A DNA stretch of 7,771 nt from Candidatus Baldrarchaeota archaeon (GTDB lineage: Archaea > Asgardarchaeota > Baldrarchaeia > Baldrarchaeales > DXJG01), in contig JAUQZC010000139.1 of assembly GCA_030587435.1 (NCBI GenBank), positions 1 through 7,771 on the forward strand. Direction: 5' to 3'. The number at the start of each line of letters is the position of its first letter. Position 1 is the stretch's first letter. The notes below the pieces were generated by a model. It was given only the letters and a program-made list of their open reading frames with translations. It was not told the origin of the DNA and made no database searches. This document shows positions 603 to 6,853 of this stretch, one piece after another. Made by a program: the position numbers and the translations under genes.

Positions 603-660
603 TATGTTAGAAATATAGGTTAAAGGTTGAATGAACAAAACTAGTAAAGAGGCCCGCAAT

Positions 661-1620
661 ATGATTTATAACATTTGGATTATTGATTCTTCTGGGCTTT
701 GTATATTTTATAGGTCGTATGGGGGGTTCAAGACAGACCCACATCTAATTTCCGGGTTTTTTACAGCTATATACAATTTTGCTAGGGAGGTTGGAGGAGA
801 TAGATTAGAAACCATTTCCATGCAAGATACAGCATTTACTTTTCTTGTCTCTAAAAATATACTTTTTGTAGTTGCTTCAGATGATAAAACTGGAAATGAA
901 GGTAAAGAACTTCTGAAAGCAATTGAAAAGGAATTCTTCAAGAGATTTGAACGAAAACTTGTTCTTTTCAGTGACATGCTTCGTGAAACTCCTGAAGTTT
1001 TAGCCTTCCAACACTTTGTGGATTCTTTAGTTGAAAAAATTAACGCTAAACCTACAGTTTTACTGGAAATTAAACTTGAAAAAGAGCTGGAAAATATTTA
1101 TCCAAAGCGATTATGTAGTATTATTGAATTATTAAGACGAGGTTCTAGAATTCGCGAAGAAATAATGAAAAAATTTGGTTTAGAAGGATTAGACGTTCTA
1201 AGTATTGCAGACGGAACTCGTAATATAGTAGAAATTTCCGAAATTGTTGGCTTACCACCTCCAAGAGCTCTCGAAATAATAGAATATGCTAGACAACATG
1301 GATGGCTAACAATGCGATCAATCGGTAAAGCAGAGATCTCGAGTATTATCGAGAGTTTTCTTAGAGGAGAGATAAACATCAGAGAAGTTGGAGAAAAATT
1401 ATCTAAAGTTTATGGAAGAAAGGTAGATGAAGAAACCATAATGAGACTAATAGAACCTGCCAAAAGGATCGAAGGAAGCATTAAAAAAGGTTTATCTGCA
1501 TCATTGAAAAGAAGACCGGACATAAAAAAAGAAACTGTCTCAAAAATAGCATTTTTAGCTGCAATAACTACCCTAATTTTAGTGTTAATTCTATTGTTTA
1601 CAAAAAATGTTAGAATCTAA
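661..1620 (+). CDS. Longin-like domain protein with winged-helix-like segment and C-terminal membrane anchor
   Basis: This is a 319-residue protein of unknown function. Residues 1-125 read as a longin-type alpha/beta domain. They start directly with a strand (MIYNIWIIDSSGLCIFYRSY), then SGFFTAIYNFAREVG (helix), TAFTFLVSKNILFVVASDD (two strands) and a long helix ending EKEFFKRF. This is the pattern seen in sigma/mu-adaptin-like longins and archaeal relatives. Residues about 173-218 (LSIADGTRNIVEISEIVGLP to EYARQHGWL) look like a winged helix-turn-helix of the 'DGxR...EIAE.LGL' kind. A basic, helical stretch follows, then one hydrophobic segment (about 296-313, IAFLAAITTLILVLILLF) with only six residues after it, so the protein is probably tail-anchored facing the cytoplasm. 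Start choice: the ATG at 661 has GAGG (649-652) eight bases upstream and opens exactly on the domain. An in-frame ATG at 631 would add ten polar residues and has a poorer site. The longin call is from pattern recognition, not a search. Confidence 0.8.
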   Translation: MIYNIWIIDSSGLCIFYRSYGGFKTDPHLISGFFTAIYNFAREVGGDRLETISMQDTAFTFLVSKNILFVVASDDKTGNEGKELLKAIEKEFFKRFERKLVLFSDMLRETPEVLAFQHFVDSLVEKINAKPTVLLEIKLEKELENIYPKRLCSIIELLRRGSRIREEIMKKFGLEGLDVLSIADGTRNIVEISEIVGLPPPRALEIIEYARQHGWLTMRSIGKAEISSIIESFLRGEINIREVGEKLSKVYGRKVDEETIMRLIEPAKRIEGSIKKGLSASLKRRPDIKKETVSKIAFLAAITTLILVLILLFTKNVRI

Positions 1621-3111: not shown

Positions 3112-3154
3112 CATCCGTGGAGAAAGAAAAATAAATATCCTAGGGTTGAGGAAA

Positions 3155-3742
3155 ATGGAAAACAAAGCTACAAAATTGAAGGAAATAGCTGAGAAGATAA
3201 AAAACTGTAAGAAATGCGAACTTTGGAAAAATAGGACAAATGCCGTTCCGGGAGAAGGAAACCCAAATGCAAAAATAATGTTTATAGGAGAAGCTCCAGG
3301 TAGGAACGAAGACCTTTATGGTATACCTTTTTGTGGAAGAGCTGGTGCAGTCTTAGATGACCTTTTAAGCGAAATAGGCTTGAAAAGGGAAGATGTTTTC
3401 ATTACTAATGTTGTAAAATGCAGACCTCCAGGAAACCGTGACCCTAAGCCTGAAGAAATTGCTGCGTGTTCCCCCTTTTTAGATGAACAGATTAAAGTAG
3501 TAAATCCGAAAATAATTGTCACCTTAGGAAATTATGCAACTAGTTATATTTTGAATAAATTTGGGTTTAAAGCTGAAAACATAAGTAAGGTTCGTGGAAA
3601 AGTTTTCAAAGTAACCACACTTCTAACAACATTAAAAATCATACCAACATATCATCCAGCTACCTCTCTCTATAGACCTCCACTAAGAGAATACCTTAAA
3701 GAAGATTTTAAAATCATAGCTAGAGAATTGGAGGAAACTTAA
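3155..3742 (+). CDS. udg: Family-4 uracil-DNA glycosylase, [4Fe-4S] type
   Basis: This 195-residue enzyme removes uracil from DNA by cleaving the N-glycosidic bond, the first step of base excision repair after cytosine deamination. Four cysteines for the iron-sulfur cluster are present: C18 and C21 (NCKKCEL), C89 (VVKCRPPGNRDPKP) and C105 (AACSPF), with the normal spacing. Motif A is GEAPGRNED (45-53), the uracil-pocket segment is GIPFCGRAG (about 56-64), and motif B carries the catalytic-loop histidine in TYHPAT (H167). Length is normal for the family, and no key residue is missing. Start: the ATG at 3155 has GAGG at 3148-3151, with a short spacing of three bases; an in-frame TTG at 3146 would add three residues. 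No PIP-box is visible in this protein, although family-4 enzymes elsewhere work with PCNA. It appears monocistronic, divergent from the PIP-box gene and followed by the structured-RNA island. Confidence 0.95.
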   Translation: MENKATKLKEIAEKIKNCKKCELWKNRTNAVPGEGNPNAKIMFIGEAPGRNEDLYGIPFCGRAGAVLDDLLSEIGLKREDVFITNVVKCRPPGNRDPKPEEIAACSPFLDEQIKVVNPKIIVTLGNYATSYILNKFGFKAENISKVRGKVFKVTTLLTTLKIIPTYHPATSLYRPPLREYLKEDFKIIARELEET

Positions 3743-3756
3743 AACGTATTAAATTG

Positions 3757-3874
3757 CCGTAGGGTGAGGCTATAGCGAGAGAAGCGTGCTACGGACAGAT
3801 CCTTTGCATCCAAAGATACACTTAATCCCCCACAGAGGAGGATTGAGGATCACGCTTCACCTATCGCCGCCTCA
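3757..3874. ncRNA. Unidentified structured RNA: GC-rich island with nested stems and a crossing pairing
   Basis: This intergenic island is about 54% G+C in an AT-rich window and folds extensively. Pairings seen directly: TGAGGC 3765-3770 with GCCTCA 3869-3874; ATAG 3772-3775 with CTAT 3861-3864; GAAGCGTG 3781-3788 with CACGCTTC 3851-3858 (8 bp, perfect). Inside these, hairpin CTTTG 3802-3806 / CAAAG 3811-3815 has a 4-base loop, and hairpin AATCC 3824-3828 / GGATT 3840-3844 is extended by CC/GG around ACAGA. CCGTAG 3757-3762 with CTACGG 3789-3794 crosses the nested stems. GC-rich structured islands in AT-rich archaeal genomes are a classic sign of non-coding RNA genes. The strand is unresolved. 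The minus strand is slightly favoured, because the C3829/A3839 mismatch becomes a U-G wobble there, making hairpin 2 continuous. I find no 5S, SRP, RNase P or tRNA signature. It could be a trans-acting RNA or, on the plus strand, part of a long tldD leader. Confidence 0.7.
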
Positions 3875-4110
3875 ATATTTATATTGCTGAATTATAATAT
3901 TAGTTTTTCTATCTAGAATCCTAGAACGCCAGTTGCAACTAATATTTGGATGTTTGATTTAAAGTCGGTTATATATCGTTGTACGTAGATAAATACTGTC
4001 ATTGCAATGAAATGGTAGATTATTATAATATCTAATACCTTTAAAATAGGTAATTGAATCTGTAAGAATGTTGAAAGATTAGATAACTAGGTTTGATAGG
4101 AAGGGATTTT
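3875..4110. other. AT-rich intergenic stretch between the RNA island and tldD
   Basis: I see no coding frame here. Just after the island on the plus strand is a T5 run (3904-3908) that could end a plus-strand RNA. Read on the minus strand, ATATAAAT and TATTATAA stretches (about 3876-3900) could be promoter elements for a minus-strand RNA. Two perfect palindromes share the core TTGCAA: AGTTGCAACT (3931-3940) and TCATTGCAATGA (3999-4010). The tldD promoter follows. Confidence 0.4.
4036..4052 (+). promoter_or_regulatory. Probable tldDE promoter with inverted repeat around the TATA element
   Basis: A TATA-like core (CTTTAAAATA, 4039-4048) is framed by the inverted repeat TACCT (4036-4040) / AGGTA (4048-4052). 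Initiation about 25 bp downstream would fall near 4069, giving a leader of about 40 nt to the ATG at 4111. The repeat could be an operator, but its arms are only 5 bp. Confidence 0.4.
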
Positions 4111-5505
4111 ATGGAAGAAATTTTTGATAAAATTGTTGAAAAGGGGTTCCAGCTTGGAGCTGAGTATATTGATATGCGATATCAAGAGGTGAAAAGCGAA
4201 ATTATAGTATCTGAAAATGGGAAATTTTCAAGGTATGAAAGTGAGGCTGCCCGCGGTGTTGGCATAACGGCTATCGTGGATGGAATTCCAGGTTTTGCGT
4301 CTACTACCATAATAAATCCAGACATTTTATTGGAAGTTTTAAATGAAGCTGTTAAAATTGCTAAAACGTCCACAAAACTTGTTAACAAAAAGGTTTATGC
4401 TGAAATAGAACCTTACACCGATGAGAAAACTGTTTCCGTAAAAGTAGATCCATTTGAGGTTTCTCCAGATGAAAAGGTCAACTTTGTAGTTGATGTTAAC
4501 AAAGCATCGATTATAAGTGATGAAGTAAAGAGTGTTTCTACAACTCTTGGGGTAGAAGAAGATCAAAGATGGTTTTTATCAAGTGAAGGTGCAAATATAA
4601 AGACTAGAATTTTGTTAACCGGGTTAAGACACTACTCGGTTGCCAAGGTTAATGGCGTAATGGAACGAGTGAGGGATGCCGAAACCTTCGTTGGTGGATA
4701 CGAATTTTTCAAGGAATTTAATGCTGAGAAATTCGTAACGGATCTATCGAGACTTGCTATTGACGCTGCGAAGGCTAAGCCTGCTAAGCCTGGAACGTAT
4801 CCTGTTGTTGCTGATCCAGACATTATTGGATTAATTCTTCACGAGGCTTTTGGACATGCTAGTGAAGGTGATCTAGTTGCTAGCAAGGAATCTATACTTT
4901 GTGGTAAGCTTGGTGAGAAAGTTGCAAGTGAATATGTGACCATTGTCGATAATGGAGTAGTTAAAGGGGGATATCCTGTATGGTATGATGATCAAGGAGT
5001 GAAGAAGATGAAAACCGTTATAGTTAAAGAAGGTATTCTTGACGGTTACCTTTTAAGTAGGGAGACTGCCTCTGACCTTGGGTTGGAGCCAACCGGCAAT
5101 GCTAGAGCCCAAGATTTTGAGAATGTCCCCATCGTTAGACAAACAAACTATTATATGGAGCCTGGAGACCATAGTTTTGAAGAACTTGTAGAAGATGTAG
5201 ATTTTGGTTACTATATCAAAGGTAGAGGCGGCGGCGGTGGTCAAGTGGATGTAGGTGTTGGCAGTTTCATTTTTAATGCGGGACCAAGCTACGTTATTGA
5301 AAAGGGAGAAATAAAAGAGTTAGTTAAATCTGTTTCGATTAGTGGACTGATTTTAGAAACCTTAAAGAGTGTTGATGCTGTTGGAAAAGATTTTAAGGTT
5401 ACTACTAGTGTTTTTGGTGGCTGCGGGAAAAGTGCTCAACGTGTTAGAGTAGGTCATGGAGGCCCGTTTGTTAGAATTAGAAAAATGATTATCGGAGGAA
5501 GATAA
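4111..5505 (+). CDS. tldD: TldD, zinc metalloprotease catalytic subunit of the TldD/TldE complex
   Basis: This 464-residue protein has the full set of TldD features. The N-terminal alpha/beta domain reads GAEYIDMRYQE...GVGITAIVDG (about residues 13-65). The zinc motif HExxxH is H244-E-A-F-G-H249 (in LILHEAFGHASEGD). Downstream are the glycine-rich GRGGGGGQVD segment (about 371-380) and the C-terminal FGGCGKS with C438, the cysteine that completes zinc binding in the family. TldD and TldE form a heterodimeric cytoplasmic peptidase that cleaves unfolded peptides threaded into its cavity. In E. coli it matures microcin B17 and degrades the CcdA antitoxin; the archaeal substrate is unknown. Start: the ATG at 4111 has GGAAGGG (4099-4105) five bases upstream. 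An in-frame TTG at 4093 would put this site inside the gene and is less likely. It is in an operon with tldE, one base downstream. Confidence 0.95.
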   Translation: MEEIFDKIVEKGFQLGAEYIDMRYQEVKSEIIVSENGKFSRYESEAARGVGITAIVDGIPGFASTTIINPDILLEVLNEAVKIAKTSTKLVNKKVYAEIEPYTDEKTVSVKVDPFEVSPDEKVNFVVDVNKASIISDEVKSVSTTLGVEEDQRWFLSSEGANIKTRILLTGLRHYSVAKVNGVMERVRDAETFVGGYEFFKEFNAEKFVTDLSRLAIDAAKAKPAKPGTYPVVADPDIIGLILHEAFGHASEGDLVASKESILCGKLGEKVASEYVTIVDNGVVKGGYPVWYDDQGVKKMKTVIVKEGILDGYLLSRETASDLGLEPTGNARAQDFENVPIVRQTNYYMEPGDHSFEELVEDVDFGYYIKGRGGGGGQVDVGVGSFIFNAGPSYVIEKGEIKELVKSVSISGLILETLKSVDAVGKDFKVTTSVFGGCGKSAQRVRVGHGGPFVRIRKMIIGGR

Positions 5506-5506
5506 A

Positions 5507-6853
5507 ATGATAGATTTATTGGAAATAGGTGGAAAGGCTCTAAGTTTCGCCGAGAAGCTAAATGTAAGTGAAGTAGAAGTTTATCTTGTTCAAAATACTT
5601 CAAAAAGCTGTCTTTTAAGCGGTAAGATCGATGTTGTTAAAAGCAACGTGGCCTCAGGTATCGGTGTGAGAGTGATTATTAATAAAAAGATTGGAGTTTA
5701 CGGAATTACAAGCTTGGAGGAAAATGAGGTTGAAAAGGCGGTTGAAAAAGCTGTAAAGATAGCCAAGGCAAGTGACCCAGACCCAGATTTTAGAGAATTA
5801 AACAAAAAGTTCGGTAAGTCTTCTGTTTCTGGCATATATGATAGAGAAATCGCTGAAATGGACATAGGAAAAATTTTTGATGCTGCTGACACTTTAATAA
5901 CATCTTCCATGGATTATAATGAAATTGTTGAACCTACACGTGGAATTATTGAAACTTCTACTTGGAAAATTGCTATTTGTAATTCCCATGGCATAGAAGC
6001 TGAAAGAGAAGGAACAGGAGTAGTTACATGGTTTAGATGTAAGGCAAAAGATGGAGGAAAAGAAGCAAGCGCTGGAGAGTCCAAACAGGCAAGAAGATGG
6101 AAAGATATAGATTTCTCCGAAGTAGCAACAAGTGCTGCTAGCAAGGCTGTTAGCATTCTCGATGCCACGTTGATTGAAAACCAGAAACTACCGGTTATTT
6201 GGCACAATAAGTTTACAGCATCGATGGTCGACATTATGTTTGGAAACACGATAGATGCTTACAGTGTTCAAAAAGGTCGCAGCCCGTGGAAGGATAAAGT
6301 TGGACAACAAATAGCTTCTGAGGATTTTAACTTAGTAGATGACGGTGTAATGGAGGCAGGTTTAAGAACTAGAGCTTTCGACGATGAAGGAGTTGCTACA
6401 AGAAAAACGCCCATAATAGAAAAGGGAGAATTAAAAGGTTTTCTATACGATACCTACACAGCAAACAAGGAGGGAACAGAAAGTACTGGTAACGCTTTCA
6501 GAACTTATAAAAGTAATCCTCTTCCCGCACCTTCGAATCTTATACTTAAACCTGGTAACGCTAAGAGGGAGGAAATCATCGAAGAAACAAGAAAGGGACT
6601 TTTAGTTGTAGATGTAATTGGTGAGTGGCTTAGTAACCCCATAAGCGGTGAAATGAGTGCAACTGTGGTCGTAGGTTATTTAGTGGAAAATGGTGAAATT
6701 AAAAAGCCGGTCAAAGGAACTATGATTTCTGGGAACTTTCACCAAATAATAAAAGATGGAATAGAACTTGTTGGCGATGATATTACAAATGTTGGCGGAG
6801 TGTATGCACCTACAATAAAGGTATCTGAAATGACGATTGCAGGGAAATCGTAA
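5507..6853 (+). CDS. tldE: TldE/PmbA, non-catalytic partner subunit of the TldD/TldE protease
   Basis: This 448-residue protein is homologous in plan to TldD but lacks the HExxxH motif, as expected for the TldE (PmbA) subunit. Family features include the N-terminal region with SGKIDVVKSNVASGIGVRVI (about 38-57), the middle LPVIWHNKFTASMVDIMFGN (about 227-246), GRSPWKDKVGQQIAS (about 255-269), LRTRAFDDEGVATRKTPIIE (about 286-305), STGNAFR (about 328-334) and the C-terminal NPISGEMSATVVVGYLVENG followed by VKGTMISGNF. TldE shapes the cavity and is needed for TldD activity; neither subunit alone is active in the studied bacterial complex. The ATG at 5507 follows the tldD stop by one base and has GGAGG (5494-5498) inside the end of tldD, so translation is probably coupled and a 1:1 complex is expected. 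Confidence 0.94.
   Translation: MIDLLEIGGKALSFAEKLNVSEVEVYLVQNTSKSCLLSGKIDVVKSNVASGIGVRVIINKKIGVYGITSLEENEVEKAVEKAVKIAKASDPDPDFRELNKKFGKSSVSGIYDREIAEMDIGKIFDAADTLITSSMDYNEIVEPTRGIIETSTWKIAICNSHGIEAEREGTGVVTWFRCKAKDGGKEASAGESKQARRWKDIDFSEVATSAASKAVSILDATLIENQKLPVIWHNKFTASMVDIMFGNTIDAYSVQKGRSPWKDKVGQQIASEDFNLVDDGVMEAGLRTRAFDDEGVATRKTPIIEKGELKGFLYDTYTANKEGTESTGNAFRTYKSNPLPAPSNLILKPGNAKREEIIEETRKGLLVVDVIGEWLSNPISGEMSATVVVGYLVENGEIKKPVKGTMISGNFHQIIKDGIELVGDDITNVGGVYAPTIKVSEMTIAGKS

What the first reader, a model, noticed from the sequence alone, without database searches (positions are those of the whole stretch)
3757..3874. Unassigned GC-rich structured RNA between udg and tldD
In an AT-rich window this 119-base stretch (counted 3756-3874) has 64 G/C and no gene. 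It carries an 8-bp perfect stem (3781-3788/3851-3858), an outer 6-bp stem (3765-3770/3869-3874), a 4-bp stem between them and two internal hairpins. Such composition and nested pairing are hard to explain by chance and typical of archaeal non-coding RNA genes. It does not show the conserved sequences of 5S, SRP, RNase P or tRNA, nor clear C/D boxes. An H/ACA-type guide is possible on the plus strand, since ATA directly follows the outer stem, but there is no visible kink-turn. It may be a lineage-specific RNA.
Basis: partly seen in the sequence, partly recalled or inferred. Interest (0 to 1): 0.72.

Follow-up and report, generated by a model that had tools for sequence, protein, structure and literature searches.

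The report
Unassigned structured RNA in Baldrarchaeia
A conserved, strongly folding stretch between two protein genes of an Asgard archaeon looks like the gene of a small non-coding RNA of no known family, although no transcript has been seen and its job is unknown.

Summary
3756-3874 has 64 of 119 G/C, joint maximum of the window, and the stems lie where stated. Trimmed to 3764-3876, both strands fold better than all but 0-1 of 1000 shuffles. The window is from an Asgard archaeon (Baldrarchaeia). Both other genomes found with this locus carry the island. Against the more distant one it has no substitution over 3764-3889 and one inserted loop base; flanking intergenic columns have 31 of 205 changed. 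It is single copy, matches no Rfam family, and is found in 2 of 227 Asgard genomes. In 0.69 Mb of the two relatives, 9 of the 10 other non-ORF islands of GC >= 0.52 are tRNA or tRNA-like. It is most likely a stand-alone ncRNA gene. The minus strand is favoured, about two to one: clearer hairpins, G.U where plus has A.C, and an unproven look-alike island in the same genome that only the minus-strand model hits. Hidden tRNA, SRP, RNase P and C/D box are contradicted or unsupported; an H/ACA guide is unsupported (no kink-turn, no 23S target; 16S untested). Covariation is untestable: no pair varies.

The parts
3764..3876 (-). core of the putative structured RNA (113 nt); minus strand favoured, not settled
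   Evidence: fold z -4.2 to -4.4; unchanged in two relatives but for one inserted base; single copy
3765..3874 (-). P1: 3765-3770 with 3869-3874, 6 bp; on minus a 3-nt AUA bulge (3771-3773) follows on the 3' strand
   Evidence: pair probabilities 0.78-1.00
3774..3868 (-). P2: 3774-3778 with 3864-3868, 5 bp on minus with one G.U; 4 bp (3775-3778/3864-3867) on plus
3781..3858 (-). P3: 3781-3788 with 3851-3858, 8 bp without mismatch
   Evidence: pair probabilities 0.61-1.00
3805..3820 (-). hairpin B: 3805-3810 with 3815-3820; well formed on minus only
   Evidence: pair probability 0.79-0.97 on minus, at most 0.19 on plus
3821..3847 (-). hairpin A; its loop holds the one inserted base of G002
3877..3913 (-). 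conserved A/T-rich flank: promoter of the minus RNA (inferred), or tail with a T5 run (3904-3908) if the RNA is on plus
   Evidence: 37 bases right of P1 (3875-3911): 36 of 37 identical G001-G002; 3877-3913 window-G002: 2 of 37 changed, not significantly fewer than the 24 of 184 further out (p 0.27)
3146..3742 (+). udg, left neighbour
   Evidence: PF03167
4093..5505 (+). tldD, right neighbour (TTG 4093 or ATG 4111)
   Evidence: PF19289, PF01523, PF19290

Best explanation
The island is the gene of a stand-alone small structured RNA of about 110-115 nt, specific to this lineage of Baldrarchaeia. It is most likely read from the minus strand, divergently from tldD. The RNA folds into an interrupted rod (P1, 3-nt bulge, P2, asymmetric loop, P3) topped by a head of two or three small hairpins. 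I infer that it acts in trans, held by a protein on the rod or head. Shown: conservation, fold, single copy, no known family. Inferred: transcription, strand, promoter, protein binding, trans action.
For: Fold z -4.2 to -4.4. Window-G002: 1 change in 128 columns (3764-3890) against 31 in 205 flanking intergenic columns, p 2e-6; G001-G002: 1 in 128 against 32 in 205. The only change inside is an inserted base in a hairpin loop. Single copy. 9 of the 10 other non-ORF GC islands (>= 0.52) in 0.69 Mb of the two relatives are tRNA or tRNA-like. Minus strand: hairpin B forms only there; three helix positions are G.U on minus and A.C on plus, one the reverse; flank composition leans minus in 3 of 3 genomes, weakly; L056 is hit by the minus model only.
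Against: No transcript data. Only three close genomes; the closest pair (window-G001) gives no significant contrast (0 of 128 against 6 of 205, p 0.09). No covariation. Strand: fold z is equal on both strands; a T5 run follows on plus; a CTTAAAA box lies at a fitting distance on plus in two of three genomes; the upstream motif scores higher on plus, 2.9 against 1.0; the flank classifier is right for only 31 of 42 tRNA genes and wrong for RNase P. Protein binding and trans action rest on no result.
Confidence: 0.5

Rival explanations
1. The RNA is read from the plus strand: an independent gene ending near the T5 run at 3904-3908, the 3' UTR of udg, or a leader element of tldD.
For: Island starts 22 bases after the udg stop; fold z -4.4; conserved T5 run; CTTAAAA box in the window and G001; motif score 2.9 against 1.0.
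Against: Hairpin B does not form and the middle is undefined on plus; three A.C mismatches; the box is altered in G002; the bases between island and tldD are poorly kept (24 of 184 changed, 11 gap columns, window-G002), against a tldD leader.
Confidence: 0.25
2. H/ACA-type guide RNA on plus: P1 and P3 flank a pocket and ATA is the ANA box.
For: ATA directly after P1; 16 nt between P3 and ATA, near the 14-16 nt that I recall for such guides.
Against: No kink-turn or k-loop pattern (weak evidence); no target with 11 or more pairs in the G002 23S (strict cut-off, plus pocket only); the pocket needs P2 opened; 16S untested.
Confidence: 0.05
3. A tRNA gene hidden by several introns.
For: 29 of 44 tRNA genes found in G001 and G002 are 90 nt or longer; introns missed by tRNAscan are reported for other Asgard archaea (PMC11291895, passages).
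Against: All 44 hold GTTCRA and 41 of 44 have CCA directly after the match; the island has no TTCRA on either strand. Of 4 CCA sites around it only one, at 3731 inside the udg end, finds a 7-pair acceptor partner, with G.U pairs and starting inside hairpin A; I took that as chance.
Confidence: 0.03
4. A conserved DNA element or chance composition rather than an RNA.
For: No transcript; no covariation; substitution-free runs of 113 and 110 columns also occur in coding parts of the same alignment.
Against: Fold z on both strands; single copy; no match in phage or plasmid records nor of one exact 22-mer in viral contigs.
Confidence: 0.15

Closest known systems
GC-rich ncRNA genes of AT-rich archaea (Pyrococcus abyssi sRk RNAs, PMC3124441, passages read; Klein et al. 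2002 seen only in a reference list, not held)
   Same: GC-rich, structured, intergenic island in an AT-rich archaeal genome; found by the same principle (that paper reports 73 GC-rich regions in P. abyssi, including 51 known ncRNA genes)
   Different: Those were shown by northern blot; this one has no transcript evidence. No sequence comparison with them was made beyond Rfam
Unassigned island L056:4870-4983 in the same genome G001
   Same: Matched over its full length by the minus-strand model (19.9 bits); P1, 3-nt A-rich 3' bulge, P2 with a G.U, asymmetric loop, P3
   Different: Head does not align; little shared sequence; E 0.074 in the 588 kb search; not reported by the whole-genome search of G001 at E <= 10; not matched by the plus model; no copy in the 885 kb of G002 held
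Archaeal H/ACA guide sRNA
   Same: ATA after the closing stem and 16-nt spacing on plus
   Different: No kink-turn pattern and no 23S target found

Membership tests
Any Rfam 15 family (including 5S, tRNA, SRP, RNase P) | covariance-model match | tested here: not met
   none at gathering scores in the window; at E <= 5 only leuA-Halobacteria, 13.1 bits against 47.9, E 3
RNase P / SRP RNA | being the genome's only copy | tested here: not met
   canonical RNase P lies elsewhere in G002 and SRP RNA elsewhere in G001; each was over the cut-off in only one of the two genomes
tRNA | T-arm GTTCRA | tested here: not met
   absent from both strands; present in 44 of 44 tRNA genes found in G001 and G002
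H/ACA guide | ANA box after the closing stem | tested here: met
   ATA at 3875-3877 on plus
H/ACA guide | kink-turn or k-loop | tested here: not met
   0 hits on both strands; shuffles average 0.35, so weak
H/ACA guide | rRNA target fitting the pocket | tested here: inconclusive
   none in the G002 23S; 16S not found in G001 or G002
C/D guide | C box RUGAUGA with D box CUGA | tested here: not met
   no C box with up to 1 mismatch on either strand; one CTGA on plus at 3887, which reads CTGG in G002
Stand-alone structured ncRNA gene | compensatory base changes | tested here: inconclusive
   35 of 35 pairs never vary
Stand-alone structured ncRNA gene | own transcript | not testable with these tools
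   no RNA reads available

The most novel reading that the evidence does not exclude
The island is the first described member of a new Baldrarchaeia RNA family with at least two members in one genome (this one and L056), defined by a rod with a 3-nt A-rich bulge and a variable head, and working as a lineage-specific ribonucleoprotein.
Probability: 0.2. Interest if true: 0.6.

Novelty: new member of a known kind. Interest (0 to 1): 0.4.

Why it matters
No held paper has both 'baldrarch' and 'ncrna', and no title in the listings reports non-coding RNAs of Baldrarchaeia (15 of 42 and 10 of 173 papers listed; titles and abstract starts seen). If real, this is a concrete RNA gene of unknown function in a lineage of Asgard archaea, the group regarded as closest to eukaryotes. 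The island scan also suggests that GC-rich islands are an efficient way to find RNA genes in these AT-rich genomes.

Tried and rejected
Divergent homologues. DNA search of 59 relatives: 5 have a match, the two known copies and three short ones of 23-37 bases (E 0.002-0.003) in the A/T-rich right flank, not followed. Minus model: 2 of 195 Asgard genomes; 3 of 39 relatives at E <= 10, the third (L034, 15.7 bits) lying antisense to a long ORF and dropped. Plus model: 2 of 227 Asgard genomes. Both models on 26 loci around other tldD or udg genes: none. A 21-base match elsewhere in G001 (E 0.39) was dropped. Sister genome G003 (RNase P 347 of 395 columns identical) has no udg match and only tldD paralogues of 35% or less, so the locus cannot be compared. 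G004 has udg (59%) but the model finds nothing around it.

Strand tests that did not decide. An upstream motif from 36 tRNA, RNase P and SRP genes was only A-rich. Orthologous tRNA genes are kept about equally on both sides (15 pairings, one of them poor), so one-sided flank conservation says little. T-run length behind tRNA genes does not differ from the control.

Layout alone. The P1-bulge-P2-P3 layout is common: 101 hits against 93 for the mirrored control in 1.22 Mb. Only a G-C filter, set after seeing the islands and with loops loosened, isolates the two islands (3 hits, this one counted in both genomes; mirrored 0).

Full report
WHERE IT IS. The window holds udg (3146-3742), tldD (4093 or 4111-5505) and a second tldD-like gene (5507-6853), all on plus. 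The tldD protein is 98% identical to Candidatus Baldrarchaeota Yap30.bin4.67 (L001, genome G001) and 95% to AUK032, filed as Odinarchaeota (L002, genome G002); the next relatives stand at 52-53%. No whole genome is held for the window itself.

THE OBSERVATION. 3756-3874 has the joint highest GC of 7652 119-base windows, 64 of 119. In an energy scan with 119-base windows every 15 bases, the two lowest values on either strand are those at 3766 and 3751. Trimmed to 3764-3876 the island has z -4.4 on plus (1 of 1000 shuffles as good) and -4.2 on minus (0 of 1000). With flanks it is weaker, z -2.4 and -2.7.

CONSERVATION. The island lies in the same place in both relatives. Over 3764-3889 no base is substituted in any of the three; G002 has one inserted base, in the loop of hairpin A. 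In columns 3764-3890 the window and G002 differ by 1 substitution in 128 columns, against 31 in 205 intergenic columns at 3743-3763 and 3914-4092 (p 2e-6); G001 against G002 gives 1 in 128 against 32 in 205. These 205 columns leave out 3891-3913. The closest pair, window and G001, gives 0 in 128 against 6 in 205, which is not significant (p 0.09). The run of 128 is the longest inside the aligned window for window-G002, but coding runs of 113 and 110 occur too; longer runs at or past the window's end, partly gap columns, were not checked. The argument therefore rests on the contrast with the flanking intergenic columns. No pair varies, so covariation says nothing. A small protein is unlikely: the longest ORF of 20 aa or more here is 34 aa, and the inserted base of G002 shifts its frame.

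CALIBRATION. In 338 kb of G001 and 351 kb of G002 I listed stretches with a 113-base window of GC 0.50 or more and at most 20 bases in an ORF of 60 aa: 16 islands, 2 of them this one (the G002 contig with the island, L002, was added on purpose). Of the other 14, 8 are tRNA genes by ARAGORN, 1 is tRNA-like (L150:1244, GTTCRA and similarity to tRNA-Gly loci) and 5 are unassigned (L056, L129, L130, L140, L155). At GC 0.52 or more, where this island lies, 10 others remain: 8 tRNA, 1 tRNA-like, 1 unassigned (L056). An earlier pass over 204 kb with a 90-aa ORF limit gave 6 islands, of which one holds an ORF of 80 aa; two tRNA islands of that pass are masked by 60-aa ORFs in the later one.

WHAT IT IS NOT. 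No Rfam family. RNase P RNA lies elsewhere in G002 and SRP RNA elsewhere in G001. Introns are frequent in the tRNA genes of these genomes (29 of 44 are 90 nt or longer), so a hidden tRNA was a serious rival; but 44 of 44 hold GTTCRA and 41 of 44 have CCA directly after the match, while the island has no TTCRA and no convincing acceptor. No C box. For H/ACA the ATA and the 16-nt spacing fit on plus, but the strict kink-turn scan is empty (shuffles average 0.35, so weak), no 23S site fits, and 16S was not found in G001 or G002; a partial 16S of G004 was not used. No match in phage or plasmid records, and no exact match of one 22-mer in viral contigs.

RANGE. DNA and model searches find only the two relatives: 2 of 195 and 2 of 227 Asgard genomes, apart from the weak hits told in Tried and rejected. 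The models rest on three near-identical sequences and the large searches use strict filters, so diverged relatives may be missed. G003, a sister by its RNase P, lacks udg and this tldD.

STRAND. For minus: hairpin B forms only there; three helix positions are G.U on minus and A.C on plus, one the reverse; the 37 bases to the right of P1 are 36 of 37 identical G001-G002 while the 21 bases to the left are 16 of 21; flank composition leans minus by 1.3, 0.2 and 3.3 log units in the three genomes. Against, or neutral: fold z is equal; a T5 run follows on plus; CTTAAAA lies at a fitting distance on plus in two of three genomes; the upstream motif scores 2.9 on plus and 1.0 on minus; the near right flank is not significantly better kept than the far one (p 0.27); orthologous tRNA genes show no clear difference between upstream and downstream; the composition classifier is right for 31 of 42 tRNA genes, right for SRP and wrong for RNase P. 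I put minus at about two in three.

A POSSIBLE RELATIVE. In 588 kb of the two relatives (35 of the 61 loci held from them by then, the larger ones) the minus model also hit L056:4870-4983 over its full length, 19.9 bits, E 0.074; the plus model on the same loci did not. A further 534 kb of G002 gave nothing, and the whole-genome search of G001 at E <= 10 had not reported L056. L056 is the one strong GC island left unassigned, folds at z -4.3 on that strand (-2.9 on the other) and shares P1, a 3-nt A-rich bulge on the 3' strand, P2 with a G.U, an asymmetric loop and P3, but not the head or much sequence. The layout alone is common, 101 against 93 for the mirrored control; with a G-C filter set afterwards only these two islands match in 1.22 Mb and the mirrored layout has none. 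No copy of L056 is in the 885 kb of G002 held. This is a lead, not a result.

HOW IT MOST LIKELY WORKS. A short RNA made from its own promoter, folded into a rod with a small head, bound by a protein and acting in trans. A cis role on tldD is less likely because the bases between are poorly kept. Protein, target and trans action are inference. Closest precedent: GC-rich ncRNA genes of AT-rich archaea. PMC3124441 (passages read) reports 73 GC-rich regions in P. abyssi, including 51 known ncRNA genes; PMC6429828 (passages read) describes the approach and cites Klein et al. 2002, which was not held.

Noticed in passing
L056:4857-5019 (G001:C10): A second unassigned GC-rich (0.57) island in a relative, folding at z -4.3 on plus with a 12-bp stem; weak match to the minus-strand model.
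   Followed up: partly
window 631-1620 +: Protein with a match to Fuz_longin_1 (PF19036, 27.3 bits against cut-off 26.1, E 4.4e-6) and weaker winged-helix matches: a longin-like domain, a kind known from eukaryotic trafficking proteins (recalled).
   Followed up: no
L068-L111 (tRNA loci of G001 and G002): 29 of 44 tRNA genes are 90 nt or longer, some apparently with more than one intron (L097 is 191 nt); the same is reported for other Asgard archaea in PMC11291895.
   Followed up: partly
L113 (G002:C116:68-3699): The 23S rRNA match spans 3632 bases against a 2987-position model: insertions or introns are possible.
   Followed up: no
G001, G002, G003, G026: Many tldD-like genes per genome (11, 10, 8 and 6 matches), often in adjacent pairs.
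   Followed up: no
window 3793-3802 and 3830-3838: ACAGA (minus: UCUGU) occurs twice in loops of the island; the inserted base of G002 leaves it intact. Could be chance.
   Followed up: no
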